Of a DNA stretch of 64,000 bases, positions 1,616 through 52,239 are shown piece by piece. The DNA comes from Candidatus Altimarinota bacterium (lineage in GTDB: Bacteria; Patescibacteriota; Gracilibacteria; BD1-5; UBA6164). Position 1 is the stretch's first letter. Every line of letters begins with the position of its first letter. The position numbers and the translations under genes were made by a program. The DNA is taken from positions 62,001 to 126,000 of the forward strand of contig CALREY010000003.1 of NCBI GenBank assembly GCA_943356435.1, written 5' to 3'. The notes beneath the pieces were generated by a model that saw nothing but the letters and a program-made list of their open reading frames with translations, did no database searches and was not told the DNA's origin.

Positions 1616-1616
1616 T

Positions 1617-2423: not shown

Positions 2424-2436
2424 TTAAACTCCTTAG

Positions 2437-4068
2437 CTATCTAGCTGTATTTTTTAAAATAAAATGAACTTGTCTCAATCTACCACCATATGACCGAGTC
2501 GATTCGTTAACTTGCATTGGTATTACTTTTTTTACATTTTCAGGACTAGGTATGATTACTCTCACTCTATTCCTATCTATGTTGTAATTACTGATAATGT
2601 ATTCCATTACATTTCTAGCTCTCCTCTCTGCTGTTTGTTTCTCATCTTCGAGATCTGTAGCATTTGAAAAATAACCAGGAGTTAATTCAATACGGAAGTT
2701 CGGATAATGTCTGAGTTCATCCATTATCTCATCCAAGAGTTCATTTGAGTTTTCACTCAAACTACTATCTCCTGAAAGAAATATTATTGGTTTTGCTTTT
2801 AATTCTCCTACTTCTACCAAATCATTCCATTGTTCGTCTGTTAATTGACTAAATGGGTGAGTTAGCGAATCAGTAACAGTGTTTTTGTCCGATTGCTGTG
2901 AGTATCCTCCTAGCAAGTAAAGTTTACGGATTATCGTACTGTTGATAATTTTTGTGAAATCAAATCCTTTCAAATGATCCTTGTGAGATTCATCTTCCTT
3001 GATTATATTTCTTGCATTTTCATGTGCTTCTAGTAGACCAAAGTATTTTTGACCAGCTAAACCGAACCAATTTTCTGCATTATCACGCAGATTTACCCAT
3101 TTCACTCCAGCTATCATCGATGTAATTTCTTCATCAGATAGACCACTTAAGCCAGCATATTCATCGAGGAAAGACTTGGATTGCTCCAATAAAAGACTAT
3201 TGTCATCTTTTAGCTTTTGCAATACATCGAAGTATTCATCGATTATAGTTTCTAGATGAGCATACTTTGAATTATTTTCCTCCAATAATTTACGATTGAC
3301 AAGAAGTAAATCAACTATGTCTTTATCAGCATTTCTAGATGAATAAAGTTCTACTGTACCTTCCAGAGCTAAAAGTTTGCTTTTCCATGGTTCCCATGTA
3401 GTTATTATGCATACTTCTTTGTTCCGAAATTTTTCATAGATTTCTTTATCCGACTCTCCACCGACATACCAAGGTTTATCAGTTTTTAGTAATGCATCTA
3501 CACCGAAATCTCGACCAATTGTCCTGACTTGTTGATGACTTGGAGTATTTTCCAAATATGCCATTTTCCATCCATCAGGATTAGTAGCACTAAAATGAGG
3601 CTTGGAATTCAAATCTGAAATTTTTGATATTCCACAATCCTTCCAAGCAATGGTAGAATCTCCACCATGTGACTCATCAATGACCAAAACTTCAACACCA
3701 ATCAACTCGTTTTTAATTCTGTTTAATTGATGTGCATCAGCAGTAATTACCGCAAAATCGATTTCACCATTATTCAATGCTTCAATTCTTTTTTGGTAAT
3801 CACCTTTATCTGATATCCATTGTAAATCTATTCCCTTTACTCTCAAATTGTTTTGAAGCAGATTTGATGCTATAGGAATATAACCAGGCCATCCATCCAA
3901 ATTACCATGAAAACTGACTTTTATGTTTTCAGCATCACTTGTTTTGAGTGTTATTTCTTCATTGAGCTTATTTTTGTAAAAGAAAGTAGCACCGGCTGTA
4001 AGTAAAAATATTAAAAGTACCGATATGGCAACTTTTAAACCCGTATTTGAATTTTCTTCAGGATACAT
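2437..4068 (-). CDS. Solute-binding domain fused to OmpA-like peptidoglycan-binding domain
   Basis: A 543-residue protein: one N-terminal transmembrane anchor (residues 12-30), then a periplasmic NMT1/SBP-like binding domain (about 45-330; G-Y-I-P-I-A and G-E-I-D-F-A-V-I-T-A-D are typical), a linker, and an OmpA-type C-terminal domain (about 410-540) with A-E-R-R-A-R-N-V-M-E-Y-I, the conserved peptidoglycan-binding helix. An SBP tethered to membrane and wall suggests an envelope sensor rather than a transporter subunit; no permease or ATPase is visible. It is transcribed toward XpaC and TelA and is probably in their operon. Stop TAG. A shortened copy follows immediately upstream. Confidence 0.8.
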   Translation of the reverse strand: MYPEENSNTGLKVAISVLLIFLLTAGATFFYKNKLNEEITLKTSDAENIKVSFHGNLDGWPGYIPIASNLLQNNLRVKGIDLQWISDKGDYQKRIEALNNGEIDFAVITADAHQLNRIKNELIGVEVLVIDESHGGDSTIAWKDCGISKISDLNSKPHFSATNPDGWKMAYLENTPSHQQVRTIGRDFGVDALLKTDKPWYVGGESDKEIYEKFRNKEVCIITTWEPWKSKLLALEGTVELYSSRNADKDIVDLLLVNRKLLEENNSKYAHLETIIDEYFDVLQKLKDDNSLLLEQSKSFLDEYAGLSGLSDEEITSMIAGVKWVNLRDNAENWFGLAGQKYFGLLEAHENARNIIKEDESHKDHLKGFDFTKIINSTIIRKLYLLGGYSQQSDKNTVTDSLTHPFSQLTDEQWNDLVEVGELKAKPIIFLSGDSSLSENSNELLDEIMDELRHYPNFRIELTPGYFSNATDLEDEKQTAERRARNVMEYIISNYNIDRNRVRVIIPSPENVKKVIPMQVNESTRSYGGRLRQVHFILKNTAR

Positions 4069-4078
4069 TTAACGCTCC

Positions 4079-4138
4079 AAAAGTTCCCATATAGGGACTT
4101 GTTTAAAAGGAGAAGCAATTAATACGAATACTAATTGT
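4079..4138. repeat. Duplicated hairpin block, copy 1
   Basis: An AGTTCC/AGGGACT palindrome followed by a GGAGAAGCAATTA/TAATTGTTCC inverted repeat. Nearly the same block recurs at 4490-4553, so it was carried along in the tandem duplication of the adjacent gene. It may act as a terminator on the minus strand. Confidence 0.7.
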
Positions 4139-4478
4139 TCCATATTGATGATTTATAATCATCTTTTAGCTTATGCAATACATCGAAGTATTCATCGATA
4201 ATTGTTTCTAAATAAGCGAACTTTGGATTGTTTTCATCGAGAATTGCTTTATTAATTTGCAAATCGACTTTATCTTTGTCAGTATTTCTAGATGAATTAA
4301 GTTCAACTGTACCTTCCAGAGCTAAAAGTTTGCTTTTCAATGGTTCCCACATAGTTATTATGCATACTTCTTTGTTCTGAAAATTTCCAAAGAAATTAGT
4401 TCCAGCTATTACAAAAAATAATAAAAGTACCGATATGGCAACTTTTAAACCCTTATTTGAATTTTGCTCAGTATACAT
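4131..4478 (-). pseudogene. Decayed tandem copy of the SBP-OmpA gene
   Basis: This 115-codon frame is a remnant duplicate of the 2437-4068 gene. Residues 1-28 match its N terminus (shared N-S-N and G-L-K-V-A-I-S-V-L-L), then the sequence jumps to the region of residues 210-290 (shared N-K-E-V-C-I-I-T and K-S-K-L-L-A-L-E-G-T-V-E-L), after which it stops. The binding cleft and whole OmpA domain are missing, so it is most likely nonfunctional although still open. Similar leader DNA and hairpins lie before both copies, supporting tandem duplication followed by internal deletion. Confidence 0.75.
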
Positions 4479-4489
4479 TTATATCTCCA

Positions 4490-4553
4490 AAAGTTCCCGT
4501 ATAGGGACTCGTTTAAAATGAGGAGCAATTAGTACGAATACTAATCGCTCCTT
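4490..4553. repeat. Duplicated hairpin block, copy 2; probable terminator of the VWA gene
   Basis: Inverted repeat GGAGCGATTAGTA-TTCG-TACTAATTGCTCC on the minus strand, with a stable TTCG loop and a following T-rich stretch, sits just after the VWA stop codon. The second palindrome and overall block repeat those at 4079-4138. Confidence 0.7.
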
Positions 4554-4561
4554 GTTAGTGA

Positions 4562-5290
4562 CTACCAGCTATCACCGAGATTCAAGTGTGACATGTCACC
4601 TTTGAAATCTATCTCAGCTAAAACTGACTTGAATGCTTCAGATAATTCACCAGAATTTTCCACAGTTTTGAAATCCATACCTGGTCTTTTTAAGATATCC
4701 AGATTGGCACAAAAACCTATTGCATGGACCATTACAGGTGTTTTATCAATGAAGTAATCCAGGTATTTAGCAGTAATCTGCTCGCTGTCAGGTATTCCAT
4801 CACCCAAGATAACTATGTGATATTTACCATTGGATTTTTGAGCTTTAGCTTGAGCAGTAATACTTTGGTTTGCCCAAGCTAGTGCGCTGTCCATAGGTGT
4901 ACCACCACCAGATTTTAGCTTATTTATGCCAGCCAAAACCTGATTTTTATCTGTGCTTAAAGGTGTATCTATTTTCGAACTAGATCCGAAGTGAATAAGA
5001 CCGACATTAGCATTTTCAGGAATCTTGTTTAGAAATTCCTTAGCTGCTTTTATAGCTTCGCCAAATTTTTGCTTTCCACCACAACTACCTTCCATGCTTC
5101 CACTTGTATCAATTAATAACAATACATTTGTAGCAAACAAGTCATTTGCGATAGTGACTACTTCGTTATCAGCGATTTTGCCTGGCCATTCATGAATACT
5201 GCCAGCTATCACTTCTGTTTCAATCGTTTTTGACTCGATATCACAAGCTGTTAATAGTAGCAGTAAAAACGGTATGATTATTTTTTTCAT
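4562..5290 (-). CDS. VWA-domain lipoprotein
   Basis: A 242-residue exported protein. A short hydrophobic leader ends in the lipobox L-L-T-A-C (Cys16), so it should be lipid-anchored. The von Willebrand A domain spans about residues 53-230, with the intact metal-binding MIDAS motif D-T-S-G-S-M, the later threonine in G-G-G-T-P-M-D, and the aspartate in I-L-G-D-G. VWA domains bind proteins through a divalent metal. In this cluster it probably interacts with the solute-binding or OmpA-domain partners on the envelope. Start has a clear SD-like GGGAGA upstream. Stop TAG. Confidence 0.85.
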   Translation of the reverse strand: MKKIIIPFLLLLLTACDIESKTIETEVIAGSIHEWPGKIADNEVVTIANDLFATNVLLLIDTSGSMEGSCGGKQKFGEAIKAAKEFLNKIPENANVGLIHFGSSSKIDTPLSTDKNQVLAGINKLKSGGGTPMDSALAWANQSITAQAKAQKSNGKYHIVILGDGIPDSEQITAKYLDYFIDKTPVMVHAIGFCANLDILKRPGMDFKTVENSGELSEAFKSVLAEIDFKGDMSHLNLGDSW

Positions 5291-5302
5291 ACTATTCTCC
5301 CT

Positions 5303-7060
5303 TTACCATTGCACGCCAGTTGTTAGGTCAATTTCCCCGTCCATGTTATGGGCTGAGAAAACGGCTCTTCTATTTTGTTTAGCTATATCACTGCTGCTTG
5401 GAAAACAAGGTTCAACAGTATCTACTCCATGATATGAGTATTTGCAAGTGCCGTTTATAGGACTTTTTACACCCATACCTTGAGGTACAACATTTGTAAA
5501 ACTGATATTGTAACCTTTTGAGTTCACACTGTTTTGCAACGCTTGAAACATCTCGTTTGCACGTCTTTGTGATGAATCTTGAGCTGCTTGAAGAGTATTT
5601 TTCCAAACTTGTGCATCAACACCATTACCATACTGTGCCTGCAATTTATCTCTTAGAGCTTTAGGAAAATTTGCAGGTAAAACCGCAACTCCATATTTTT
5701 CCAAGAGGTATTTTGATGGGTCAGCATGAGCTGTGATTGTTGAAATACTACCACTGCTTTTTGCCATGATGTTGAAAGTATCGTTAAATTGCTGTGTGTA
5801 TAAATCAGCATTGAAGTCATTATCATTGGCATCAAAGTTGATTGTAATACTTACAAAACCATCATCCAAGTGACCTTCGCTTGCTAGTTTTGAAACCACT
5901 CTTGCAACATCAGCTTGTTTAAAAGTCTGTACTTCTACACCGAATTGTTCATTCAGTCCATTTTTCAGGCCGTCCCAATTGTGTTTGAAAGTAGTGATTT
6001 GAGATGCTCTGTTTGAGTTTTTTAGTATTCCCATTTCGCTCAAGCTTTTTGTTACTTCAGATAATTGAGAAGTCAAACAGTTTGCTTCTTTTTTACCATT
6101 ACCAGCATCACATGTAGCGTATTTGTAGTTACCTGTCCATCCTGCCATGGTGAGATCGTATAAATACATATCACCGATTGCAGAGATGAAGTTTGGATCA
6201 TTTGCTGCTTCAAACAGTACTTCTGCACCTTTTTCTTTCAGTTTTTGCCAATCAGAGGAGCTTGCTTTGGCTAATTCACGAGTTTTTTCATTTGCAATCA
6301 ATAAGTCATGAGCTAGTTTTGCAACTTCATCTGGATTAGCATCGCTGTATTCTTTTGTAACCCATACATGGTCTGTAATGGAGTTACGAAGAGTAGCAGT
6401 TGTAACTATGATTGAGCCATTTGTAGCTTTAGCGTCATCGCTTTTCAGGTCTACGGTGATACCAAAAGAGCCATCTAGCTCACCACCGATAAATGCATTT
6501 ACTGCACTTTCTTTGGTTTTGCTATCTAGACCCAAGTCTTTGTACCATACATACTGAATTGGACTGCCTTTTGGACATTCAGCCATTGAATTGACTGTTG
6601 AAGCCAAGTCCATGTGTGGACCACCTAATTGTAAACCAATCTTTTTACCGCATAAATCGGAAAAATTCTTGATTTCTTTTTTTACAATCAGGCCGTCACC
6701 ACCTGTCGAGTCTGAGTACTTGTATAACCAGACAAGACACTTATCACTTTTTTCACATAGTGCATCAGATGCATATGCTGCTTGTCCGAGTGTACCACGA
6801 AAAAAAGGTGTTTTACCTGATCTAACATCGTTGATTTGTGCAATGATATCGTTTTGTAGGTGGATTTTGTAGCCTGATTGGATTGCTGTAATATCAGCCC
6901 CCCATAAAATCACAGGTAACTCATTCCCACTTACATTTCCAGTCGGTAAAAGTTTTTGCTCAGAGGCAGAGATTGCCTTGAGTGTTTGTGTTTTTGCTGC
7001 GCTCGAGTTTTGTGACAGGATCACAAAAAACAAGCATAAAAGTATTTTAATTACTTTCAT
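5303..7060 (-). CDS. Large periplasmic binding protein (NMT1-like)
   Basis: A 585-residue secreted protein. I start it at the ATG preceded by AAGGGG (position 7060), which gives a clean signal peptide (M-K-V-I-K-I-L-L ... S-S-A-A); an upstream in-frame ATG would add 16 residues before it. The N-terminal half resembles periplasmic binding proteins (P-V-I-L-W-G-A-D, then L-Q-L-G-G-P-H and D-G-S-F-G-I). Paired cysteines near residues 87/92, 127/152 and 306/316 suggest disulfides. The C-terminal 200 residues are of unrecognised type, with L-N-E-Q-F-G-V-E-V, and include N-R-R-A-V-F-S. It heads the minus-strand cluster. No TGA in 586 codons. Confidence 0.65.
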   Translation of the reverse strand: MKVIKILLCLFFVILSQNSSAAKTQTLKAISASEQKLLPTGNVSGNELPVILWGADITAIQSGYKIHLQNDIIAQINDVRSGKTPFFRGTLGQAAYASDALCEKSDKCLVWLYKYSDSTGGDGLIVKKEIKNFSDLCGKKIGLQLGGPHMDLASTVNSMAECPKGSPIQYVWYKDLGLDSKTKESAVNAFIGGELDGSFGITVDLKSDDAKATNGSIIVTTATLRNSITDHVWVTKEYSDANPDEVAKLAHDLLIANEKTRELAKASSSDWQKLKEKGAEVLFEAANDPNFISAIGDMYLYDLTMAGWTGNYKYATCDAGNGKKEANCLTSQLSEVTKSLSEMGILKNSNRASQITTFKHNWDGLKNGLNEQFGVEVQTFKQADVARVVSKLASEGHLDDGFVSITINFDANDNDFNADLYTQQFNDTFNIMAKSSGSISTITAHADPSKYLLEKYGVAVLPANFPKALRDKLQAQYGNGVDAQVWKNTLQAAQDSSQRRANEMFQALQNSVNSKGYNISFTNVVPQGMGVKSPINGTCKYSYHGVDTVEPCFPSSSDIAKQNRRAVFSAHNMDGEIDLTTGVQW

Positions 7061-7140
7061 ATTTTTCCCCTTAAATAGTTTATCAAAAAATGTTAATGAG
7101 CCTGCCAAAAATTAGCTGGCAGATAATACATAAAAAATAT

Positions 7141-7168
7141 AAAAAGTCAATATAAAAATTGACTTTTT
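7141..7168. promoter_or_regulatory. Perfect inverted repeat between divergent genes
   Basis: AAAAAGTCAAT and ATTGACTTTTT flank a 6-nt AT spacer in the gap between the divergently transcribed binding-protein gene and the MscS-like gene. Because no gene ends here, an operator or a 5-prime leader hairpin is as likely as a terminator. Confidence 0.45.
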
Positions 7169-7218
7169 ATATATATTTCTTATTTTATATTTACATAAAA
7201 TTTTTTGGAGTATTTTTG

Positions 7219-8442
7219 ATGAATATTTTTAGTGATTTTTGGGTTGTATTGATTAGTTTTTTAGGGTTTGAACATATTTCTGTTGACTATGTAAACTTGG
7301 CATTAATATTTGTTGGCCATTGTTTGTTTTATTTATTTGCTAAGTATGTAGTATTAAAAAAGATATACAGGTATGATGATTCTAAGAGGTACAATTCTAT
7401 AAGAATCCTCGTAGTATTGAATATTCTGTCTTTTATTACTTGGATAATTGCAGAATTAACAAACGATTATGAACATTTGAGAGTAGTTGCTATATTCTCT
7501 ATTGCTTATGTTTCGAAATTTACATTTCATATAATGAGTTATATTAACTTGAAAATATATGGAAAACATAAAGAATTCAAACAAGAAGTCACGAATCCAC
7601 TCAAAAAAAAGAAATTGAGAAAAGCATTTGCAGAAAAACTAGAAAGTCCAAGTAATGATAAAGTGCAGTTAAATCCAGAATTTTATTACATTGTGTCTGA
7701 GAATAAGTTTTATAGAAATGTTATAACAAATGTGTCATCAAAAACATCTAAATTGATAGATGTGTTGATATTTGTAGTAGTGTTTTTTGTATCACTTAGT
7801 TTGATTATTCCTGTGATTGGTAAACTGAGCGAATATTTGAACAATAGTTATGTATTAGCTATTTGTGCATTTATTTTCATCTATGTTTTGGGTCCTGTTT
7901 ATCCAAATCTCTATGGTTCGTTTTTGGTAATCAAGAATGATAATCTAGACTTGGGTGACTTCATAATGATAACTGAAAAAAATATTAAGGGTAGAATTAT
8001 CGAAGTATCTATGTTTTGGGTAAAGCTCAAAGATCATGATAATAACACTATTTTGACAGTGCCATCTTCTTATTTTCATAATAATATTATAGAAAATCTG
8101 AGTAGATTTCAGTCTAGTCATGGAAAAAAAGTAGAGCTAGAATATATTGTTAGTTATGATTTATACAAGGAAGACCAAGGTGCAAGATTGAAGGTTATTT
8201 TTAAACATATTTTGGATGAATTGGAGGAGCAGTACACTGGTTTTCATAAAGGTAGTAGTCATAATATATGGCTTACACCTGATGATAAAGGAGTTACCGT
8301 AACTATATGGTACTATGTATCAGATATAGAAAAGGAGGAAAAACTGAAATTGCAAGTAGAAGATTATTTGTTTTCTAAGTGTAGTTCTAATGAGATATAT
8401 TTGGGTTCGCAACAGTTTTTAGAAATCTCAAGTAAATCTTGA
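7219..8442 (+). CDS. MscS-type mechanosensitive channel
   Basis: A 407-residue membrane protein. The start chosen at 7219 follows TTGGAG at a 9-nt spacing; an upstream in-frame ATG at 7159 lacks such a site. There are about four N-terminal transmembrane helices, then a pore-lining helix, and after it the MscS beta domain (G-S-F-L-V-I-K ... L-G-D-F-I-M-I ... G-R-I-I-E-V ... V-P-S-S-Y-F ... E-N-L-S), then the mixed C-terminal domain. MscS channels release solutes on osmotic downshift. The gene ends in TGA, followed 10 nt later by a terminator; read with UGA as glycine it would gain only Gly-Ile before TAG. Confidence 0.85.
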   Translation: MNIFSDFWVVLISFLGFEHISVDYVNLALIFVGHCLFYLFAKYVVLKKIYRYDDSKRYNSIRILVVLNILSFITWIIAELTNDYEHLRVVAIFSIAYVSKFTFHIMSYINLKIYGKHKEFKQEVTNPLKKKKLRKAFAEKLESPSNDKVQLNPEFYYIVSENKFYRNVITNVSSKTSKLIDVLIFVVVFFVSLSLIIPVIGKLSEYLNNSYVLAICAFIFIYVLGPVYPNLYGSFLVIKNDNLDLGDFIMITEKNIKGRIIEVSMFWVKLKDHDNNTILTVPSSYFHNNIIENLSRFQSSHGKKVELEYIVSYDLYKEDQGARLKVIFKHILDELEEQYTGFHKGSSHNIWLTPDDKGVTVTIWYYVSDIEKEEKLKLQVEDYLFSKCSSNEIYLGSQQFLEISSKS

Positions 8443-13701: not shown

Positions 13702-15483
13702 TTATTTGATATACAATGTTCAAGAGTTATTTGCTATTGTTCAATCATTTGGTCATAGACAAACGTGGTAAGTTGAAGCATTATAGAAATAATTTACTTT
13801 ATTAGCACTACTTCAGGCAAAGTCTGCTGATAATCATCTCGCTCAAGCAGTAGCTCATCAAGAATATGATGTATCTGAAAAACTACTTGATCATCATACA
13901 CAGTTTCAACTTGCATTCGTAGCTGCACTAAATGTACATGAAGTCCTAAAATACCTAGTTATTACATTTGCTAAATAACCACATGTCATTCTATAAGCAT
14001 TTGTATTACTAGATAAACTTTTAATTGCATTTATTTGTGTGTCTGATAACTTACTTGGCCTATTTGAAGGAGTAGGTGTTCATCAAGCTGCTGCTGATCA
14101 TAAAAGTGTATTACTTGCATCATATCAAATAGAAGCTGCTAGAGTTAGCCCTCCTCAATCATTTGTCATATCACAGTATACTTTAAATTCAGTGTTAGAA
14201 TCAGGTTTTATCCAATATATTCAGTCTCATGTTGCTCATGCATATGATTTTCAAGAACCTGGATTTATATATGTATTACATGTTGTAGCAAATGAACCAT
14301 CACTCCATGTTCTACCTGCTGTATCATCTCATGTAATAGTTAATGGTATTACATCACATGTGCTTGTTCCACTATTCCAGCTATATCCAGAATCACAAGA
14401 ATAATAACAAGGATTTAAAGAATTTGTATTTTGCCGTCATTGATTATCAACTGTTGGAGTTCAGTCAGTAAATGTAGCATTTGCCACTGCTGGTGGTAAT
14501 GCACAAGAATATGTAATTACTGTATTATTACTACTTGATGCATTAGATACTTTCACACTTCCACCTAAATCATTTTTTACTAAATATGTAGATACATACT
14601 CTGTTGCTACACTATCACTTGTATTTGTATTTAGTACTTGAGATATTTCTCATACATTTACTAGACTTGTTCCTGTATAGGCTAATTGCAATTTTTGTAT
14701 TAGTTGTTGTCTAGCTGTTACTCATGTACTAGTAGAATCTGATAATACTGATATATCTCAACTAAATACTAACAGACTTCCACTATTTACTAGATTCAGA
14801 TTTGTTTCTGGATTTGTATTGTATGAACCACTATATTGATATGGTAAGTTTTTGTAACCATCATAGGCTAGATAATTATTGTTTACTATTGTATCTACTG
14901 TTGATCATGTTGTTGTCATTATACTTGGCATAGCTAGTATATATGTAGTTGCTCATGAGCTTACTTTTAATACTTTTCCATTATAGCTTCAACTCAATTT
15001 CAATTTTGCTGTTTTTGTTGCTGCTTCTACTTGTAGCTGCTCCTTCCCTAATTTTAGGGAAGCTTGGGATGGGTTAAGGTAGCTCAATGTTTCTCCTTCA
15101 AATGCTCATGCTAATTGGAATTCATTTCTAGGTCACGTAGTACTATATACATATTCTTTATCTGTAGATGGATCTTTTGGTACTTTATCTAGTTTTGATA
15201 CATTTGCATACACAGTATCTCCAAATGTTCATTGTGTCCATGCTGTTGCTCCACTATATATGATTGCTGTTTCATTACTTGGTATTGGATATCTTCATGA
15301 TTCTAGATTGAATAGTTCTAGTGAACTTTTCATACTACTCATATCTGATAATCTAGTACTATCTCTGGCATCTGCACTATATCAACTCAGTGATATAAAT
15401 GCTATTGTACCAAGTATTGCTAGAATTGTAATTACCACTATTAGTTCTACTAATGTGAAGGCTTTTATTTTTTGTATATTCAT
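13702..15483 (-). CDS. Pilin-like adhesin A: prepilin leader plus fibrinogen-like C-terminal domain
   Basis: 593 residues. The type IV prepilin signal K-A-F-T-L-V-E-L-I-V-V-I-T-I-L is at residues 7-21: cleavage should precede Phe, and Glu5 of the mature protein is present. A pilin head, a linker holding a translated palindromic repeat (near residue 135-150) and a stalk follow. A Cys-rich G-Y-S-W-N-S-G-T-S-T-C turn leads to a fibrinogen-like domain from about residue 400 to the end: Y-W-I-K-P-D-S-N, then V-Y-C-D-M-T-N-D-G-G-G-L-T, which is the family signature, with later Cys and Gly-rich strands. Such domains bind sugars or acetylated ligands. Many glycines are UGA. Likely a surface or pilus-tip adhesin. 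Confidence 0.85.
15040..15082. repeat. Palindromic repeat translated inside pilin-like adhesin A
   Basis: CTTCCCTAATTTTAGGGAAG (15043-15062) with a flanking GGGTTAAGG arm. The frame passes through it unbroken, encoding roughly N-P-S-Q-A-S-L-K-L-G-K-E within the linker of the pilin. Confidence 0.75.
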
Positions 15484-21026: not shown

Positions 21027-23354
21027 TTAATTTTTAAAACATCTAATAGGTAATCAAAATGAGCGATTCATAGAAAAATATACTTTTATATCAGTCGGTG
21101 ATACATCTAATCTATATGCATCATTTCATGTAGGTGTTGAAGCCCAATATTGTACATAATTTCAGTCTCACATTTGATACATTACTCAATCAGATCTATG
21201 ACGATATCATGAATTTGCTATTTTTAAATCACTCATCATTTGTCATCCATTTGTTCACCATCATCATGTATTTACTAGATTTGACCACTCTATTTGTGTT
21301 GGTACATGATATCATGGCTCACATGGTCACTGCATTGCTTCTTTTGTATTAGTATTGTTTCACCATAAATCATCGTTTTTTACACTACTCCAATCATATG
21401 GTGTTGACATAGATGCTCATCAAATAAAATTAGTATTGTTATAATAATTGCTTGGTCAATATGATGATCAATCTACTAAACTAGTAGTAGGTGTTATAGT
21501 TCAACTAAATGTTCATCAATTATTTCACCATTGGAAATATTTCCCATATGAGCTAGTTCATGTTCCAGATACTGTAGATCATACATTACAAGCAGATAAA
21601 GTATATCATAATCAAGGTCAACTACATACAATAATATCTGGACTACTACATCAGTTATATGTAGTTGAAGCATTAATTATTTGTCATGTACTTGTACAAC
21701 TACTTATAGTATTAGTTTTTTCTCATTTTATACATCTTACACTATATGCAAAACTCTTACTACCAGCTTGACGTCAAACAGTATTATTTCATAGTATAAT
21801 TTTACGTATAAATTGTACAGTATCATGATAAGAATCTGCTGTCCATAAAGAAGTATTTATTCAACGTGATGAAAATGAAGTTCAATCAGTATTACGTTGT
21901 CAAGCTAAAGGTAATTTTAAAAAATTTACTAAGTTTGTATCATCTGTTTTTAAATTATGTCAAAACCATCATAGTCAATTACAAAAAAATCAAGTAGTTG
22001 TATACCTACATTTAGATTTATTTAAGTTGTCTTCTAATAATTCCCAGTCATTATCTGTTGGTACTTTCCGTCAAGAAGGACATGCTGAATCCATATTATA
22101 TCATGTATACAATTTTCACCATATATTATCTACTTCAGTATCTCAATTTGTTGTATTTCAAATATACCAAAGATTTGCTTTATAATTGCTAGTCATTCAA
22201 GTGCTATAACTATTACAATTACTAGTATTACTTACTCAGTCATAGTTTGGGTAACAGTTTGTAATAGTTCAATCTATTCAATTATCTTGTTTTCACCATT
22301 CTATACCATTTCATAATGTAGAATTACATCATGCCCAAGTTTGTCATCATAGACTTATATCTGGATTATTACAATTAGAGTCCAATGTTTGCCATCAAGA
22401 TACTACTGAATTTCCGCTAATTTCCAATTTTGCTCACAGAGTATTATTTACGAAACTTGCAGCATAATTTAGCAAATCTTGACTTGGATTATTTGTATCT
22501 ATAGTTAAATCTGATATATTTTTTATCTCTCACTCATTTTGTACTATCGATCAACTATAAGCGTCTTTTAATCATTTTACTAAGTTTACTCTAGCAGTAT
22601 AGCTAGTAGTATCAGTTAATGGAGAACAACTAGATGCATCAGAGTATGCTAATAAGTTATTAGTAGTGAAATCAAATCAAGCATCATGTTTAAATTTGCT
22701 TCATTTGAAAGTACTAGGTAGGTTTTTATATTTATTATATACCAATTTTTTTTCTGTAACTATTTGTTGTAAATCAGTTACGCTAGTATCATTAGTAATA
22801 ATAGTAGGAATACTTAATACATTACAAGTTGAACCAGATAATGATTTAGCCATAGTTCAATTATAATTTCATGTAGTATATGCTATTGCTTCTACTTCTC
22901 CAGCATTGGTTTGTGAAACTACATTATTCATTATTCATTTTTCATTATTCATTGATATTTCATCCCCTTCCATAATTCATCATAATTCAAATTCATTTTG
23001 AGAAGTTATAACTGAATAAGTATATTCTTTATCAGTTATTGGATCTAGAGGTATTTTATCTAATTTTGATGTATTAGTATATACTGTTTCTCAAAAAGTT
23101 CATTGATTCCAAACAACAGCTCAGCTATATGTAATATTTACTCAAGATGTAGGATTTGGGTATTTTCAAGCATCTAAATGAAATAATTCAAGAGAGGTTT
23201 TCATAGACGAAATGTCAGACAATCTAGTACTATCTCTAGCATCAGTACTATATCATTGTAGGCTTATAAACGCTATAGTTCATAATATTGAAAGAATAGT
23301 AATTACTACTATAAGCTCTACTAAAGTGAAGGCATTTTTATATTTTTTATTCAT
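21027..23354 (-). CDS. Pilin-like adhesin B: prepilin leader plus two FISUMP domains
   Basis: 775 residues. Prepilin signal N-A-F-T-L-V-E-L-I-V-V-I-T-I-L at residues 7-21. Head and stalk resemble the other three large pilins here. Two C-terminal modules are FISUMP (Fibrobacter succinogenes major paralogous) domains: first about 365-540 with P-S-G-R-K-V-P-T-D-N-D-W-E-L-L, L-P-L-A-G and F-A-Y-S-V-R-C-I-K; second about 545-775 with G-P-C-E-P-G-Y-H-V-P-T-Q-I-E-W, Y-W-A-S-T-P-T-G-N and final G-L-P-I-R-C-F-K-N. FISUMP domains are found on bacterial surface proteins. Dozens of UGA glycines. Likely displayed on the cell surface or pilus. Confidence 0.85.
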
Positions 23355-42358: not shown

Positions 42359-43918
42359 ATGACACAAACGTGAATTAAAAAAAATGATATATTAGAAAAT
42401 ATATTAGTAGAGAAACTAGTATTTTGAGGTAAATGATTTGCTAAGTTGAAACATGATAATCCAGATTTGGATGGAAGAGTAATATTTATTACAGGATGAG
42501 CTATACCAGGTTCTATAGTAAATCTAAGAGTACTGAATAAGAAAAAATCATACATAGAAACTCAAATAGTTGAAATAGTACAAAAATCAGCTATGGAAAT
42601 AGAAAATATTAACAACAATTATTGAATGTCAGGTGGGTGGAAATGGATAAATATACCATATGAAGAACAACTTAAAATAAAACAAGAGCAAATAAAAGAA
42701 TCTCTAAATGTATTAAAAAACAAGATAAATCCTAAAGTAACAGAAGAAAATCCAGAGTTGGCTGATATAAATGTTTTTGATGAATTATTTTTACCTATAG
42801 AAGCTTCACCAGTAATAAATGGTTACAGAAATAAAGTAGAATTTAGTTTCTGAAAATATTTATCATTCAAAAATGGTATCGAACAACATTTCAATGTATG
42901 ATTTCATAAGCAAGGGGAATTTTCAAAAGTAGAAGATTATGATGGTGCTCCGTTAATTGATGAAGAACAAAATGAAATATATAGAGAAATCAAAAAGTTT
43001 AGTAAAACAGTTTGATTACCTGTATATGACCAAATGAAACAAGAATGATTTTTTAGACATATTTTGATTAGAAAGACACATTTTACACAAGAAATGATGA
43101 TACTTTTGAGTTTTAATCCTGAGTATTTCGAAAAAAATACAAATCTAGATAAAGACGAAAAATTATCTATTATTAAATTTTTCTTGATAGGTTTAGCTAG
43201 TAAATATCCTGTGATAAAGTCTGTTTATCTATCACATAATCCAAATAAGGCAGATGTATGTATATGAGATTTAGAGTTAATTTATGGTGAAGCAACTATA
43301 AAAGAAAAAATACTTGATTTAACTTTTAATATCTCTCCTACTTCGTTTTTTCAAACCAACTCTAGTTGAGCTGAAAAATTGTATTCAATTGTATTAGATT
43401 TCGCTAAAAATAAAACAAATTCTACTATTCCATTTTTTAGTAGAACAAAAGATGATTTCAATGATATGACAGTATTAGATTTGTATGGAGGTACAGGTAC
43501 AATATGAATGATATTTGCTAATGCTTGAGCACAAAAAGTTATTTCAGTAGAAATGGTGACATCAGCAAGCAAAGACTGAGCAGAAAATGCTAACTTGAAT
43601 TGTCTTACTAATATAGAATTTGTCAATGCAAAAGTAGAAAAATTCCTAGAACAATATCTAGCTGAATGAAATACTGCTGATTTACTAGTAATAGATCCAC
43701 CTAGAGCATGAATGCATCCTGATTCTTTGCCAAATATTTTAAAATTTGATACTAATCAAATAATATATGTGAGTTGTAATCCAGCTACTCTAGCTCGTGA
43801 TTTGTGATTTATATTAGATAATTCTGATTATAAAATAGAAAAAATCCAAGCAATGGATATGTTTCCTCATACTCATCATATAGAAACTGTTGTAAGTTTG
43901 GTTAAAAAAGACAAATAA
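42359..43918 (+). CDS. RlmD/TrmA-type (uracil-5)-methyltransferase
   Basis: 519 residues. An N-terminal TRAM domain (about 1-60: G-x-x-x-A-K-L, G-x-x-I-P-G-S-I-V), a middle region, then the SAM domain: T-S-F-F-Q-T-N motif, L-D-L-Y-G-G-T-G-T-I-G (SAM), V-I-D-P-P-R-A-G-M, and Y-V-S-C-N-P-A-T-L-A-R-D-L with the nucleophilic Cys. It methylates uridine in rRNA or tRNA. The four-Cys iron-sulfur cluster of RlmD is not evident, so RlmD versus TrmA/RlmC is open. Stop TAA, terminator follows. Confidence 0.9.
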
Positions 43919-43950
43919 AAAAATGTAGAAAATTTTCTACATTTTTTTAT
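43917..43950. terminator. Bidirectional terminator
   Basis: AAAAAAATGTAGAAAA/TTTTCTACATTTTTTT stem between the methyltransferase and the convergent membrane gene. Confidence 0.85.
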
Positions 43951-44948
43951 TTCATATTTATAGTACGAATTCTACAATTATCTTTGTTTTTGAATGCTTT
44001 GTCAGGGATTATTTCATTATTACTTATATACAATATTTTATCTCCAGTATTATTCCAATAACAAGAACTAAAAATATCTGATTTATCAGTTGATTCTATA
44101 TTATCACTTGTCTCTAGTCATAATACTCAGATTAAAAATGATAATTTATTTTCTGTATTTCATGGTATGAAATCTATATATTTTTTCCATTCTGTAACTA
44201 GATTATTATTTAATAAATTAGACTTATTTAAAAATTGATCTTTATCATATAAGTAGTTTTCCTTATTTGTATAACTTTCATCTATTTTTTTATCTTCAAA
44301 TGTAAATATATCTCATAATATTTCTATTCAATTTTGAGTTATTTTTAGTTTATCTTTATTTTTCTCATACCATACATTATTTTCATTGCTTCTAGCTAAC
44401 CAATTATTTAATCAATTATTTCTTTCTAGCATTTGATATGTATTATAATCGATAAATGATGAAAATTTATTATTAAAATAATTATAAATAGGAATAATAA
44501 TAGCTAATGATAGTATTAATGCATAGAATATTTTTAAATATTTATGTACATTGATTCAATGAATTACAAATCACGAGTATAAATTAATAAGAATAAATAT
44601 ACTTGTAATAAAGAATACATACTTAATTCTCTCCAGTTCTGATGCATCATTTATACTCAGATTTAAAGATAAATATAACAATAAAATACTAAAAACAAAG
44701 AAAAGATAAAATAGTAAATTGTATACTCATCAAAAATTTGCAAAATTTAAAGGTTTGTATAATCAAAAATAATATAGTAATACATAAATTATTAATACTA
44801 ATAAAATTAAAAACATAAATATACTAGAAGCTCATGCTCATAATCATTGAGCTACAAAAAAAGTATTATATATAAAATATAAAGTAATATAGATAATAGT
44901 TCAAATGACTATAAACAATGATAAAAAAAATAATTTATTAATAAGCAT
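43947..44948 (-). CDS. Polytopic membrane protein, unknown
   Basis: 333 residues: five or six membrane helices within the first 170 residues, then an external or soluble domain of about 155 residues, with Asn/Lys-rich stretch. The stop TAA (43947-43949) sits within the shared terminator. No family recognised. The gene is immediately downstream of pilin-like adhesin C on the same strand. Confidence 0.6.
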
Positions 44949-44994
44949 AATTTTAATTTTAAATCAATACAAGCAAATTATAATTGATTATTTG

Positions 44995-47838
44995 TTAGTT
45001 ACAAATTTTTGATATTTTAGTTACATTGAATGCATTATTGTTTGAAGTATATATATTTCATGAATTATCTAAAGTTATTGACCATGGTCAAGTTCAAGTT
45101 GTTCATAATGTAGAAGATACTCCAGCTGATGTAATTCTTGTAACGTTACTAGATGAAGTATTTGCTGTATATACATTTCACGAACTATCAACTGCAATTC
45201 AACGTGGAGAAGATCAAGTAGTTCAAATGATGGTAGAAACTCAAGCAGGTGTTATTTTAGATACATCATTACCTAATTCATTTGCTGTATATAAGTTTCA
45301 TGACGAGTCTATAGTAATTCAACGAGGAGCTGATCAAGATGTAGAAAATGTAGTACTTATTCAACTAGGAGTAATTTTGGTAATATTGTGAGAATAAGTA
45401 TTTGATGTATATATATTTCATGAGCTATCTAAAATTATTCAATATGGATTATTTCATGTAGTTCAATGAGTTGTAGCTATTCATGCAGGTGTAATTTTTG
45501 TAACATTATTAGAAGACCAATTTGCAGTATAAACATTTCCTAGATTATCAACTGTTATTCATTGAGGATTTGTTCATGTAGTTCATAAAATTGTACTTAC
45601 TCATGCTGGTGTTATTTTTGATACATTATTAGAAGACCAATTGGATACATATAAGTTTCAAGAATTGTCTATAGTTATTCAACGTGGATTTGTTCATGTA
45701 GAAGCAAAAGTACTATAAACTCAATCTGGAGTTATTTTTGTTACATTATTTCACCAATAGTTTGTAGTATAAATATTCCCAGACGAATCAACCACTATTC
45801 ATTCAGGCCAATCTGAAGTTTGACCATAAGTTGATGATACTCATCATTGTGTTATTTTAGTTACATTGTGAGATCAGTTGTTTGTTACAAATATATTTCA
45901 AGTACTATCAACAACCAATTCCCACGGATAAGTTTTTGCAGTTCAAAGAATAGATGAAACTCAAGCAGGAGTAATTTTAGTAACGTTACTAGAACTTCTA
46001 TTTGCAACATAGATATTACCTGATGAGTCTCTAGCTATTCAACGAGGTTCAGTTCATGCCGTACCAAATGTACTTGATACTCATGCATTGGTAATTTTTG
46101 TTACATTATTTCATCAACTATTTGCTGTGAATATATTACCAGAAGGATCAATAAGTAAAGAACGTGGAAAAGATCAAGTAGTTCATAAAGTACTAGATAC
46201 TCAAGCAGGTGTAATTTTCGTTACATTATTTGAATTAGTGTTAGCTGTATACACATTTCAAGCTGAGTCAACTCATATTCAATATGGATTTGTTCAAGTA
46301 GTTCAATGTATAGTAGAAACTCAAGATGGAGTAATTTTTGAAACATTATTTGATGTCCAATTAGACGTAAATATGTTTCAAGATCCGTCCATAGTTATAA
46401 AATATGGATTTGTACCTGTAGTTCAAAGAATAGTAGATACTCAAGCAGGAGTAATTTTTGAAACATTATTTGATGTCCAGTTAGCAGTATAGATGTTTCA
46501 AGAACTATCCATAACTAGTCCACGAGGATTTGTTCAAGTAGATGCATATATACTATGAACTCAACTAGGAGTAATTTTTATAATTTTATTTGTTGTAAAA
46601 CTAGTTACATATTTATTTCATGAAGAATCAATTATTATTCATTCTGGATAATCTCAAGTAGCTCACATATTTGCACTTGAATATGAATAACTACAAGCAC
46701 TATTACAATCTATTCAAGTGTATCCAGAATTGCATGAATAATAACATGCTGATGAACTATTTGAATTTTGCCATGATTGATTTTCTTGAGTAGCAATTCA
46801 TGGAGAAAATGTAGCATTTATATAATTTGGTTGTGAAGCACATGTATAAATAGCTCAAGAATTTATTCATCACTGTACAATTACTGATCATCATAGTACA
46901 TTGTTTACGAAATTTCAAGCATAATTAACAGTAGATTGACTAGGGTTATTCATATCAATTGCTAAATTTACAATATTATGTATTTCTCATACATTTTGTA
47001 ATATTGTACCACTATATGCATCTTGTAATCATTTTATTAATTTTATTCTCTCTGTACTTGTAGTATTACTTGTTAGGTCATTACAACTTCAAGTATTTGT
47101 ATATGCAATTAATTTGTTAGTAGAAAAATTAAATCAAGCAATAGTATTAAATTTGCTCGACTTAAATGAACTAGGTAGATTATTATATCAATTATAAACA
47201 AGTCTTTGTTCACTCATTATTTGTGATAAATCAGTAACACTTGTGTCATTAGTTATTATTGAAGGTAATGTAATCATATTACATGTAGTTCAACTCAGAC
47301 TTTTTGCTGTCAATCAATTGTAATTACCTGTAACATATGCTATTGCTTCTATTGTTCATGCTGAAACCCCTCTTCATTCTCCCCTTGTCAAAGGCGATGA
47401 GGCTACATTATTCACTATTCATTTTTCAATATTCATTGATATACTATCCCCTTCCATTATTCATCATATTTCATATTCATTTCTATTTAAAGTTACTGAA
47501 TATGTATATTCTTTATTTGCAATGGGATCAGATGGAATTTTATCTAATTTAGTCGTATTTATAAAAACTGATTCTCAAAAAGTTCATTGTTTCCAAACTG
47601 TCGATCAACTATAACTAATATCTACTTGATTCGTAGGAATAGGATATTTTCAAGACTCTAATTCAAACAATTCTAGAGATGTTTTAATACTTGATATATC
47701 ACTTATTCTAGTGCTATCTCTTGCTTGTGTACTGTATCATTGTAGTGATATAAACGCTATTGTTCATAGAATAGCTAATATAGTAATAACAACAATTAGT
47801 TCAACTAATGTAAAAGCTTTAATTTTTTGTATATGCAT
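44995..47838 (-). CDS. Pilin-like adhesin C: prepilin leader plus 14 beta-propeller repeats
   Basis: 947 residues. Prepilin motif K-A-F-T-L-V-E-L is at residues 7-14 and is followed by the shared head and stalk, a linker with a translated palindromic repeat (near residue 150-165) and a Cys-rich turn. Then from about residue 386 to the end come fourteen 40-residue repeats, period exactly 120 nt, such as G-T-N-P-Y-G-I ... V-D-S-A-G-N-V-Y-T-A-N and N-N-V-T-K-I-T-P-A-G-V, an NHL/SBBP-type propeller blade. Fourteen blades fit two seven-bladed propellers. Propellers bind proteins or glycans, so a surface adhesin is likely. PilT lies divergently 129 nt away. Confidence 0.85.
45001..46681 (-). repeat. 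14 direct 120-nt repeats encoding propeller blades
   Basis: Recurring T-C-A-A-G-C-A-G-G-A/T-like box at 45121, 45241, 45361 and on every 120 nt to 46561. Copies differ by many point changes but have no indels, so the period is preserved at the codon level. These are coding repeats, not a CRISPR array. Confidence 0.9.
47366..47402. repeat. Palindromic repeat translated inside pilin-like adhesin C
   Basis: ACCCCTCTTCATTCTCCCCTTGTCAAAGGCGATGAGG with CCTTTG/CAAAGG core, read in frame as S-S-P-L-T-R-G-E-G-R-G-V-S, in the same linker position as the repeat in pilin A. Confidence 0.75.
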
Positions 47839-47967
47839 ACTAAAAAGATATAATATAATAATATTATTCTATTAATTTTTTCATATTTTCAAAAACTATT
47901 TCAAATATTTTACTTTACTAAAATATTATGATAAAATAAGTTAAATATAATTATTAATCATATTTGA

Positions 47968-49065
47968 ATGACTACTAAAGAACTTATAAATAATATCTTG
48001 GCTTATACTACACAAGAACATTATTCAGACATACATATCACATCAAATAGTAAAATAATGATCAGAGATAGATCATGAGAAATTATTGCATTGGATAATT
48101 TGAATATAGATTGAAAAGTATTGGAATTACCAACAATGAATAAAATAGCTGTTAAAACTGTTATGTTAGAAATAATCTGAGAAAAATGATATCAAGTATT
48201 TGAAAGAGATATGGAATATGATAGCTCTTTTATGATAAAGTGATGAGATAGATATAGAGTGAATTGTTATATGGATACTGAATGATTTTCTATTGCTCTT
48301 AGAAGAATCCCAAATAAAATACCTACTCTAGAAGAATTATGACTTTGAGAACAAATAGAGACAATGTGTAATAAATCTAAATGATTAATCCTAGTTACAT
48401 GACCTACTGGTTCTGGTAAATCAACGAACCTTGCAGCGATGATAGATTACATAAATAAAACACAAAAAAAACATATAATAACTATAGAAGATCCAGTAGA
48501 ATTTTCTTTTAAATCAAATAAATCACTAATAAATCAAAGAGAAGTAGGTAATCATACTAAATGATTTGAAGCTGCAATTAGAGCGTCTCTGAGAGAAGAT
48601 CCGAATGTAATAATGGTATGAGAAATGAGAGATCCAGAAACAATCAAAGCAGCTATTACATTAGCTGAGACATGACATCTAGTATTCTCTACTCTTCATA
48701 CTAATGATTCAGTTCAAACTATAGATAGAATAGTTGATATATTTCCATGAAATCAACAAAATCAAATCAGAATGCAACTAGCTATGAACTTGGTATGAGT
48801 AGTATCTCAAAGACTATTATCTAGATCGGACCAAGAGTGAAGAATTGCAGCTAGAGAAATACTTATATCAAATGATGCTGTGAGAAATCTTATTATTACA
48901 GGAAAAACTCATCAATTGTATAGTGTACTTGAAGTATGACATAAACAATGAATGATACTTATGGATAAATATTTAATGGCTTTATATAAGAAAAATATAA
49001 TCTCAAAAGAAACTCTTATGAGTTATGCAAGAGATAAAGAGTGAATAGAAATGATGCTTAATTAA
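47968..49065 (+). CDS. pilT: Pilus retraction ATPase PilT-like
   Basis: 365 residues. N-terminal PAS-like domain, then Walker [14 protein letters not shown] (first glycine TGA), Asp box I-E-D-P-V-E-F, Walker B-like V-G-E-M-R-D-P-E-T, and the His box [16 protein letters not shown] is a PilT hallmark. PilT powers retraction of type IV pili. It is divergent from pilin-like adhesin C and leads the pair with the cNMP-like gene. No PilB, PilC or prepilin peptidase is in the window. Confidence 0.95.
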
Positions 49066-50040: not shown

Positions 50041-52239
50041 TTACCATTCTCAAATAAATTTATTAGTATCATAATCTACTCAGTCAGTTCAGTAAAGATA
50101 TGGAATATTTGTATTTACATCATCTTTTACAGGTCTAATTTGTTTTGGAATACCTGATCAAAATGTAAATGTTTCATTTCAATTAAATGTTAATCATGTA
50201 ATTCTTTCCTTTAGACTTGAATTCCATCATGAAACAGAAGGTATAACAGCTACAGTATTACTAAATGTTCATGAAGTAACATATGTTCAATCAGAAAATA
50301 TTGATGATCAAGTACCCGCAACAGGAGTTTTATTTCTACTATTTCAGTAATTCTTATATGTTCAATAATATTTGAATCATGTATGTCAATCACTATAACT
50401 ATAATATCACCAATCTGAATTATTATACGAAGAACAATTATTATAAGCAGTTGCATTGTAATAAAATCATACATTATTACTAAATGCTACTACATTATTA
50501 AATATTGATCAATATGTTCATCATATTCATTCAGATCTGAATCAGTATCAATTATTAAAAGCTACAGCATTATTTACATATGATCACCATCATTGATTAT
50601 TAAAATAAGCATATGATCAATTATTATATCATAGAAAATTATTAATAGTAACATATGATGAATTGTTTTGTAATGTTAATCAATATTGACTATTATTAAA
50701 AACTATTACATTATTTATATTATTATAAAGACTTCAATTTAAATATACTCAATATGCATGATTATATGATTTAATATTAGTAAAGTTTCAATAATATGAA
50801 TTATTATAAAGTAATCAATATCATCACTCATGAGTAGTAATATCTTTAAATGTCATGTAATATGTAGATACTACATAAACAGAAAAATCAGTAAAATTTT
50901 TTATTTCAGTATTCCCTAAATACTGATTATATTTACTAGAACTATATGTTGAATTATTATAAAATATTCATGTTAATGCACTACTATTTCAATTAAAATC
51001 AATATTTGATATTACTGTATTTCATCATGTTACATTTATTGTTTGTGTATGTGTACCATTAGCTATAAGAGTTACATTTCATTCTCATATAAGAGCACTA
51101 CAAGCATTCATTGTCATAGCTGATACGCTATAGCTTCATTCTTTTACTAAATATACAGTATTTGCAGCAAGTGTTGTAGGTATTGTATCACCAGAATTAA
51201 TAGTAATTTTTGTAATATTACTTACTACACAAGGATTACTATTCCAATTTGTTGTAAATGGTGAACTAGTACCAAATACATAATCAGGAGTTACATTTAC
51301 TACAGTTGGTGCTTTATTATCTCACGCGATAATATTTCAACCAAATATTTTATTTACATAATTTCAAGCTAAGTCTATTGCTTCTTGACTTGGGGAATTA
51401 GTATTGATAGTTAATTGAGAAATATTACTTATCTCTCAAGCATTTTCTACTATACTTCCACTATATCAATCCTTTAATCACTTTAGTAATGCTACTCTAG
51501 CACTATAATCTGTTTTATCCGTTAATAATGAACAATTTGATGTATCACTATAGGCATTTAACTTACTAGTAACAAAATCAAATCATCAATCTTGTTTGAA
51601 TTTTGATCCTGTAAATGAACTAGGTAGATTTTTATATCATTTATATACTAGTTTTTTTTGTGTAACTAATTGTTGTAAATCTGTTGTACTAGTATCATTA
51701 GCAATTATTGAAGGTAAAGTTAATACATTACAAGTATTTCCACTAAGAGATTTTGCCATCATTCAATTATAGTTACCACTTGTAAAAGCAAAAGCTTCTG
51801 TATTTCAAGCGTTAGCTTTATTTTGAAACAAGTTCACTATCAAATCATCTGATTCAGTTATTCATCACAATTCAAACTCATTTCTAGTAGATATAACAGA
51901 ATATGTATATTCTTTATCAGTTAATGGATCAGTTGGTATATGGCTTATATGTCAGACATTTGCGAATACTTTTTCTCAAAAAGTTCATTGATTCCATACT
52001 GTTGCTCAACTGTAAGTGATATTTACTCAGTTTGAAGGCATAGGGTATTTCCCTGCATCTAGTTGATATAATTCTAGAGATGCTTTCATGGATTCTATAT
52101 CACCTATTCTTACTCAATCTCTTGCCTGTGCTGAATATCCAGAATATGAAAAAAATCATATAGTTCATAGTATTGCTAGTATTGTAATAACAACAATTAG
52201 TTCAACTAGAGTAAAAGCTTTATTTTTTATTTTTTGCAT
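50041..52239 (-). CDS. Pilin-like adhesin D: prepilin leader plus beta-helix domain
   Basis: 732 residues. Prepilin motif K-A-F-T-L-V-E-L-I-V-V-I-T-I-L is at residues 8-22; the shared head and stalk follow. From about residue 340 to 650 the sequence repeats a N-N-spaced strand pattern (V-F-N-N-S-Q-Y-G-L-T-L, A-V-A-F-N-N-G-Y-G-F, V-V-A-F-S-N-N-V-G-F-Y), the right-handed parallel beta-helix seen in pectate-lyase-fold proteins; an N-terminal I-T-I-N-S-G-D-T-I segment caps it. It ends with F-N-G-N-E-T-F-T-F-G-S-G. Beta-helices often degrade or bind polysaccharide; here binding on a pilus is inferred. Convergent with the pilT pair. Confidence 0.8.

What the first reader, a model, noticed from the sequence alone, without database searches (positions are those of the whole stretch)
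44995..47838. Fourteen indel-free propeller repeats on a pilin backbone
The 120-nt period is exact over 14 copies although the copies are diverged, so selection keeps blade length. Fourteen blades fits two seven-bladed propellers at the end of a pilin. I know of no described pilin with such a tip.
Basis: partly seen in the sequence, partly recalled or inferred. Interest (0 to 1): 0.75.

Follow-up and report, generated by a model that had tools for sequence, protein, structure and literature searches.

The report
Swappable-tip pilins, one with twin propellers
The gene encodes a pilus subunit ending in two seven-bladed propellers, and it is one of at least 36 genes in this tiny bacterium that carry the same pilin base with different binding tips, which looks like a large interchangeable set of grappling hooks for attaching to other cells or surfaces.

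Summary
Read with TGA=Gly (code 25, Gracilibacteria), 44995-47838(-) encodes a 947-aa prepilin whose residues 384-943 are exactly fourteen 40-aa NHL/Vgb-type repeats. AlphaFold gives propeller folds, with confidence dipping between blades 7 and 8. Repeats seven apart are more alike than chance (p=2e-5), so 14 is a duplicated seven-blade unit; a paralogue has one seven-blade ring. The larger finding is that the genome has at least 36 complete genes with the same ~320-aa backbone and differing tips: FISUMP, LamG, fibrinogen-C, LRR, RCC1, Reg_prop, NHL, others. Tip type is almost unlinked to backbone phylogeny, and near-identical backbones (92-98% DNA) carry unrelated tips. The propeller pilin and a membrane ORF form a 4-kb insert between two genes that lie under 100 bp apart in five relatives; two further pilin sites are empty in congeners. 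Best reading: combinatorial, gained-and-lost type IV pilin adhesins of a host-dependent bacterium, a new variant of modular pilins. Filament assembly and adhesion are inferred, not shown.

The parts
44995..47838 (-). 947-aa modular prepilin with 14-blade NHL propeller tip (TGA=Gly)
47449..47838 (-). Prepilin leader (KIKA|FTLVE, Glu at +5) and GspG-like pilin domain, residues 1-130
   Evidence: N_methyl, TIGR02532, GspG hits; long helices 11-33 and 37-62 in the model
47356..47427 (-). Disordered linker carrying an in-frame palindromic element (SSPLTRGEGRGVSA)
   Evidence: hairpin fold and presence/absence among paralogues; pLDDT < 40
46873..47361 (-). Conserved second backbone domain, residues 160-322, shared by all full-length paralogues; no match to a solved fold found
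46690..46872 (-). Disordered Cys-rich linker, residues 323-383, where the tips diverge; Cys382 and Cys946 bracket the propellers
   Evidence: pLDDT ~25; Cys list
45850..46689 (-). Blades 1-7 (residues 384-663), predicted first propeller
45010..45849 (-). Blades 8-14 (residues 664-943), predicted second propeller, aligned to virginiamycin B lyase
43947..44972 (-). 341-aa membrane protein of unknown family, inserted together with the pilin
   Evidence: no Pfam hit; apart from one weak, frame-broken match in G008 (E 5e-10) absent from 19 relatives
43947..47900 (.). Approximate 4-kb insert between the trmA-like gene terminator and the PilT promoter; ends not exactly mapped
   Evidence: flanks adjacent in G001-G004 and G007
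42359..43918 (+). tRNA (uracil-5-)-methyltransferase-like gene, left flank of the insert
47968..49065 (+). PilT-family ATPase, right flank of the insert
   Evidence: T2SSE 1.4e-48
50041..52239 (-). Paralogous pilin (L100) with a repetitive, beta-helix-like tip; site empty in G002 and G003
21027..23354 (-). Paralogous pilin (L086) with a FISUMP tip
13702..15483 (-). Paralogous pilin (L111) with a fibrinogen-C-like tip; backbone 97-98% identical in DNA to L109

Best explanation
This is a modular minor pilin. The leader and helix put it into a type IV filament, a second domain conserved in all paralogues acts as a carrier, and a disordered Cys-rich linker presents two seven-bladed NHL propellers that bind a ligand on another cell or surface. 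It is one member of a family of at least 36 pilins in this genome that share the carrier and differ in the tip. Recombination within or next to the backbone, together with gain and loss of whole pilin genes at intergenic sites, reassorts tips and gives a host-dependent Gracilibacterium a changeable set of adhesins. Shown here: the architecture (sequence and predicted fold), the family size, the near-random pairing of tips with backbones, and presence/absence sites. Inferred: assembly into pili, the tip location, adhesion as the function, and host choice as the selective pressure.
For: Pilin N-terminus and propeller tip. Thirty-six complete genes share a backbone that ends at residue ~320, with tips from 141 aa upward and at least eight Pfam tip types. 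Near-identical backbones carry unrelated tips: L092 NHL with L094 FISUMP, 92-96% DNA identity then a drop; L089 with L121, 98.5% then a drop; L109/L111, 97-98% then tips at ~40%. On the backbone tree FISUMP needs 8 changes against 8.8 for shuffled labels, LamG 5 against 4.8, and starred branches keep the two NHL tips apart. The 4-kb insert is absent from five relatives. L100 site empty in G002 and G003. L094 site beside a second PilT empty in G003. The genome has one prepilin peptidase, eight T2SSF domains and several PilT/PilB-type ATPases. The backbone matches 58 of 59 relatives, many with 20-30 or more copies. Literature: modular pilins PMC8179133; propeller pilin needed for host binding PMC12206443.
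Against: No expression, filament or binding data exist for this organism; the functional steps rest on homology. The genome is a 30-contig assembly in which many contig ends fall inside these genes, so copy number and a few junctions (L121 in particular) carry assembly risk. Outside the order the listed matches cover only the pilin part (model positions ~1-180 at most), so the carrier domain has no independent functional evidence. Whether the tip was replaced or the backbone converted cannot be told.
Confidence: 0.7

Rival explanations
1. A GspG-like pseudopilin system for protein secretion, in which the C-terminal domains are enzymes or cargo-handling modules instead of adhesins; the NHL/Vgb propellers could be a lyase.
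For: GspG/T2SSG is the best named pilin match; Vgb lyase is the best structural neighbour; a Gracilibacteria genome paper listed 15 large GspG proteins among type II secretion parts (PMC6851277).
Against: PilT-type retraction ATPases lie beside some of the genes, which fits pili. Most tip types (LamG, fibrinogen-C, LRR, RCC1) are binding modules. Fold similarity of a propeller shows no enzyme activity, and catalytic residues were not compared.
Confidence: 0.15
2. Tips are fixed, anciently duplicated adhesins with no ongoing exchange; similar backbones with different tips reflect old duplication plus divergence of the tip.
For: Some tip classes do cluster: FIBC needs 2 changes against 3.9 shuffled, and all labels together need 23 against 25.9. 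The tip-less pilin L119 is a stable orthologue in G003.
Against: Backbones still 92-98% identical in DNA cannot have drifted tips into different folds; FISUMP and LamG show no clustering; several pilin sites are empty in congeners.
Confidence: 0.12
3. Phase or antigenic variation of the pilE/pilS type: one expressed pilin drawing on silent cassettes.
For: Many homologous copies with conserved 5' parts; backbone identity tracts that look like conversion.
Against: The copies are full-length with their own start codon, leader and stop, not silent fragments, and variation sits in whole non-homologous domains instead of mini-cassettes.
Confidence: 0.08

Closest known systems
Modular type IV pilins (Streptococcus sanguinis PilB and PilC; Raynaud et al. 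2021, PMC8179133)
   Same: N-terminal pilin module followed by a grafted C-terminal binding module; LamG/concanavalin-type tips occur in both; Gracilibacteria are named among the examples.
   Different: Here one ~320-aa carrier, including a second conserved domain, is reused in at least 36 genes of one genome with many tip types, and tips pair almost at random with backbones.
TM7x (Nanosynbacter lyticus) PilX2 (PMC12206443)
   Same: Minor pilin of a Patescibacterium with a C-terminal seven-bladed beta-propeller; its deletion roughly halves host binding.
   Different: RCC1-type single ring and no predicted PilD signal; the present protein has NHL/Vgb-type blades, two rings and an N_methyl leader.
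PilY1/PilC pilus-tip adhesin
   Same: Beta-propeller displayed at a type IV pilus tip.
   Different: PilY1 is not a pilin, and its propeller family is not matched here.
Virginiamycin B lyase / NHL propellers; designed Pizza proteins
   Same: Blade sequence and seven-bladed fold.
   Different: Tandem rings on a pilin; enzyme residues not tested.
Large GspG proteins of gracilibacterium BD1-5 (PMC6851277)
   Same: Probably the same kind of gene: 15 GspG, average 528 aa.
   Different: That paper filed them with secretion genes and did not describe tips or a carrier family; homology to them was not tested here.

Membership tests
Modular type IV pilin | Class III (prepilin) leader with hydrophobic helix and Glu+5 | tested here: met
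   N_methyl and TIGR02532 over cut-off; FTLVE invariant or nearly so in paralogues. Residue -1 is Ala here, Gly in some paralogues.
Modular type IV pilin | Extra C-terminal domain not specific to pili | tested here: met
   NHL/Vgb propeller
Modular type IV pilin | Assembled into a type IV filament | not testable with these tools
   Machinery is encoded; no filament data
Modular type IV pilin | Extra domain has a direct role such as adhesion | not testable with these tools
   Inference from domain types only
NHL/Vgb-type beta-propeller | Repeat profile above curated cut-off | tested here: met
   NHL 140 bits (cut-off 20), Vgb_lyase 174 (cut-off 50)
NHL/Vgb-type beta-propeller | Closed propeller ring in structure | tested here: met
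   AF2 model only; VIA Z 35.6, 1.8 A over 271 residues to 2z2o. Ring borders not exactly fixed.
Virginiamycin B lyase (enzyme) | Catalytic and metal-binding residues | not tested
   No residue comparison made
PilY1/PilC | PilY1-type beta-propeller domain | tested here: not met
   Not among Pfam or NCBIfam hits up to E 0.1
TM7x PilX2 | RCC1-type propeller tip | tested here: not met
   No RCC1 hit in this protein; paralogue L115 does carry RCC1
pilE/pilS antigenic variation | Silent, start-less donor cassettes | tested here: not met
   Paralogues are full-length ORFs with leaders

The most novel reading that the evidence does not exclude
Gracilibacteria run a genome-wide tip-exchange system: one pilin carrier gene serves both as the filament anchor and as the homology tract by which adhesion modules (propellers, lectin-like, LRR, fibrinogen-like) are swapped and whole pilin cassettes are gained at intergenic sites, so that host or prey range evolves by combinatorial module exchange.
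Probability: 0.35. Interest if true: 0.85.

Novelty: new variant of a known kind. Interest (0 to 1): 0.62.

Why it matters
How tiny host-dependent bacteria choose and hold their hosts is an open question. One pilin carrier with dozens of different binding tips in a 1.5-Mb genome, nearly unlinked from backbone ancestry and gained or lost at defined sites, gives a concrete and testable candidate for host-range determination. It also extends modular pilins from single cases to a whole-genome repertoire.

Tried and rejected
Standard code and table 4: rejected, because TGA must be read through and Gly at TGA falls on conserved glycines of the blades. A fourteen-bladed single ring: not favoured, because of the lag-7 signal, the pLDDT dip and the seven-blade paralogue. 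Target-site duplication at the insert: a 10-bp direct repeat TTTCATATTT lies near both ends, but by a rough estimate of mine it is expected about 0.2 times by chance in such AT-rich DNA, so it is not claimed. Orthology at the L100 site: the pilin there in G001 (L125) has an unrelated tip and also groups elsewhere on the backbone tree, so in-place tip exchange is not claimed. NHL propeller on a pilin in the 58 relatives: not found with the NHL query, but G003:C25 has a pilin with an SBBP-like propeller tip read by eye. NHL propellers in order members sit on other surface proteins. Carriage by viruses: one full-length backbone match, in a contig that may itself be bacterial. Fold of the second backbone domain: Foldseek and VIA found no match; the model has pLDDT 77, so this is inconclusive.

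Full report
Check of the observation. The window comes from a genome that reads TGA as glycine: the ORF at 44995-47838(-) is open for 947 aa only with TGA as a sense codon and uses 84 TGA codons as Gly. The nearest named record is 'Candidatus Gracilibacteria bacterium'. The N-terminus is a prepilin with N_methyl, TIGR02532 and GspG-like matches. Residues 384-943 are fourteen 40-aa repeats with no indel; pairwise identity is 32-80% in protein and 50-74% in DNA. Profiles: Vgb_lyase 3.8e-51, NHL 5.6e-42, SBBP 4.7e-34; the best solved relatives by sequence are designed Pizza propellers and PknD.

Two rings of seven. AlphaFold2 on the full protein with 36 rows gives regular blades, mostly at pLDDT 80-95, with low confidence in the linker 318-395 and a dip at 640-677, next to the boundary of repeats 7 and 8. 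Overall pTM is 0.39, so the relative placement of domains is unknown. VIA-align ranks virginiamycin B lyase first (Z 35.6, 1.8 A, 271 residues, model 672-947) and aligns 535 residues to 2ymu, a highly repetitive propeller protein that I recall (not checked) as a 14-blade WD40 tandem. Many rows span both rings, so ring borders are not fixed by this. Independently, repeats seven apart are 63.2% identical against 55.3% for shuffled order (p = 2e-5; 46% against 30% on variable columns), and no other lag comes near. Paralogue L092 carries exactly one seven-blade unit and has Cys on both sides of it (319 and 606), as this protein has Cys382 and Cys946. I conclude that a seven-blade unit was duplicated.

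The family. A search of the own genome gave 59 matches to the protein, nearly all to the pilin part; some are pieces at contig ends. I took out the genes and counted 36 complete ones including this one. Thirty-four of them, compared over the ~320-aa backbone, are 46-69% identical to this one, with homology stopping near residue 313-325, after which tips of 141 to 1132 aa follow. Pfam tips: FISUMP in at least seven, LamG five, fibrinogen-C six or more, LRR two, Lcl_C two, InlB-type two, NHL two, RCC1 one, Reg_prop one on a full backbone plus one on a divergent pilin; L100 looks like a beta-helix by eye. The backbone has the pilin domain, a disordered linker and a second conserved domain (residues 160-322) without a match among solved folds.

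Tips and backbones are reassorted. L092 (NHL) and L094 (FISUMP) share 92-96% DNA identity to residue ~220 and about 80-88% to ~270, then fall to background; L089 and L121 share 98.5% then diverge; L109 and L111 share 97-98% and then have tips at ~40%. L121 starts at a contig end and could suffer from assembly; the other two pairs lie inside contigs and differ by several percent, so they are not assembly copies. On the backbone tree FISUMP needs 8 changes (shuffled 8.8) and LamG 5 (4.8); FIBC, LRR and the short tips show some clustering. Labels for a few tips were assigned by eye from FISUMP-like motifs (L082, L085, L099, L102, L104).

Gain and loss. In G001-G004 and G007, a trmA-like gene and a PilT gene are about 75-97 bp apart; in this genome a membrane ORF and the propeller pilin, both in the opposite orientation, lie between them. 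One filled site against five empty ones favours insertion over repeated loss. The pilin site at 50041-52239 is empty in G002 and G003, and in G001 holds a different pilin. The L094 site next to a second PilT is empty in G003, while the tip-less pilin L119 on the other side is conserved there. In all three places the pilin stop codon lies just after the terminator-like hairpin of the neighbouring gene. The NHL-on-pilin fusion was not found in 58 relatives, but G003 has a pilin with an SBBP-like tip. The backbone itself is in 58 of 59 relatives, several with 30 or more copies; across the phylum the listed matches outside this order cover only the pilin part.

Mechanism. Shown: architecture, family size, tip-backbone unlinking, presence/absence sites. 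Inferred: the leader is cut by the single prepilin peptidase, the protein enters a type IV filament driven by the encoded platform proteins and ATPases, the bulky tip sits at the filament end, and the propellers bind a ligand on a host or surface. The inference rests on S. sanguinis PilB (PMC8179133) and TM7x PilX2 (PMC12206443).

Known or new. Modular pilins are known, and a propeller pilin is known. A paper on gracilibacterium BD1-5 noted 15 large 'GspG' proteins (PMC6851277) but did not describe tips in the passages read. In the literature searches made here I found no description of a one-carrier, many-tips repertoire, but only open-access papers were searchable. I rate it a new variant of a known kind.

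Noticed in passing
window 401-8442: Six genes (TelA, OmpA-like, VWA, MscS-like and two without a Pfam hit) contain no TGA among their glycine codons and have G+C of 0.28-0.41, in a genome where most glycines are TGA: probably recent horizontal transfer from a standard-code donor.
   Followed up: partly
window 47356-47427; L083, L090, L094, L099, L114: In-frame palindromic elements of several families sit in the leader and in the linker between the two backbone domains of these pilin genes, reminiscent of Rickettsia palindromic elements; one family has about 20 sites in the genome. L092 lacks the in-frame element (about 33 nt) that its near-identical sister L094 has.
   Followed up: partly
G000 contig ends (C1, C3, C4, C7, C18, C21, C25, C29): About nine contig ends fall inside these pilin genes and two more lie within 30 bp of one, so the family is breaking the assembly and copy number is a lower bound.
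   Followed up: partly
window 43947-44972: A 341-aa multi-pass membrane protein came in with the propeller pilin; apart from one weak, frame-broken match it is absent from 19 relatives. Possible partner of the pilin.
   Followed up: partly
window ~43920, ~50015; G000:C1:2230: Three inserted pilin-bearing stretches all begin directly beside the terminator-like hairpin of the neighbouring gene, which may mark preferred landing places.
   Followed up: no
window 46873-47361: Second backbone domain conserved in all full-length paralogues has no Foldseek or VIA match to solved structures.
   Followed up: partly
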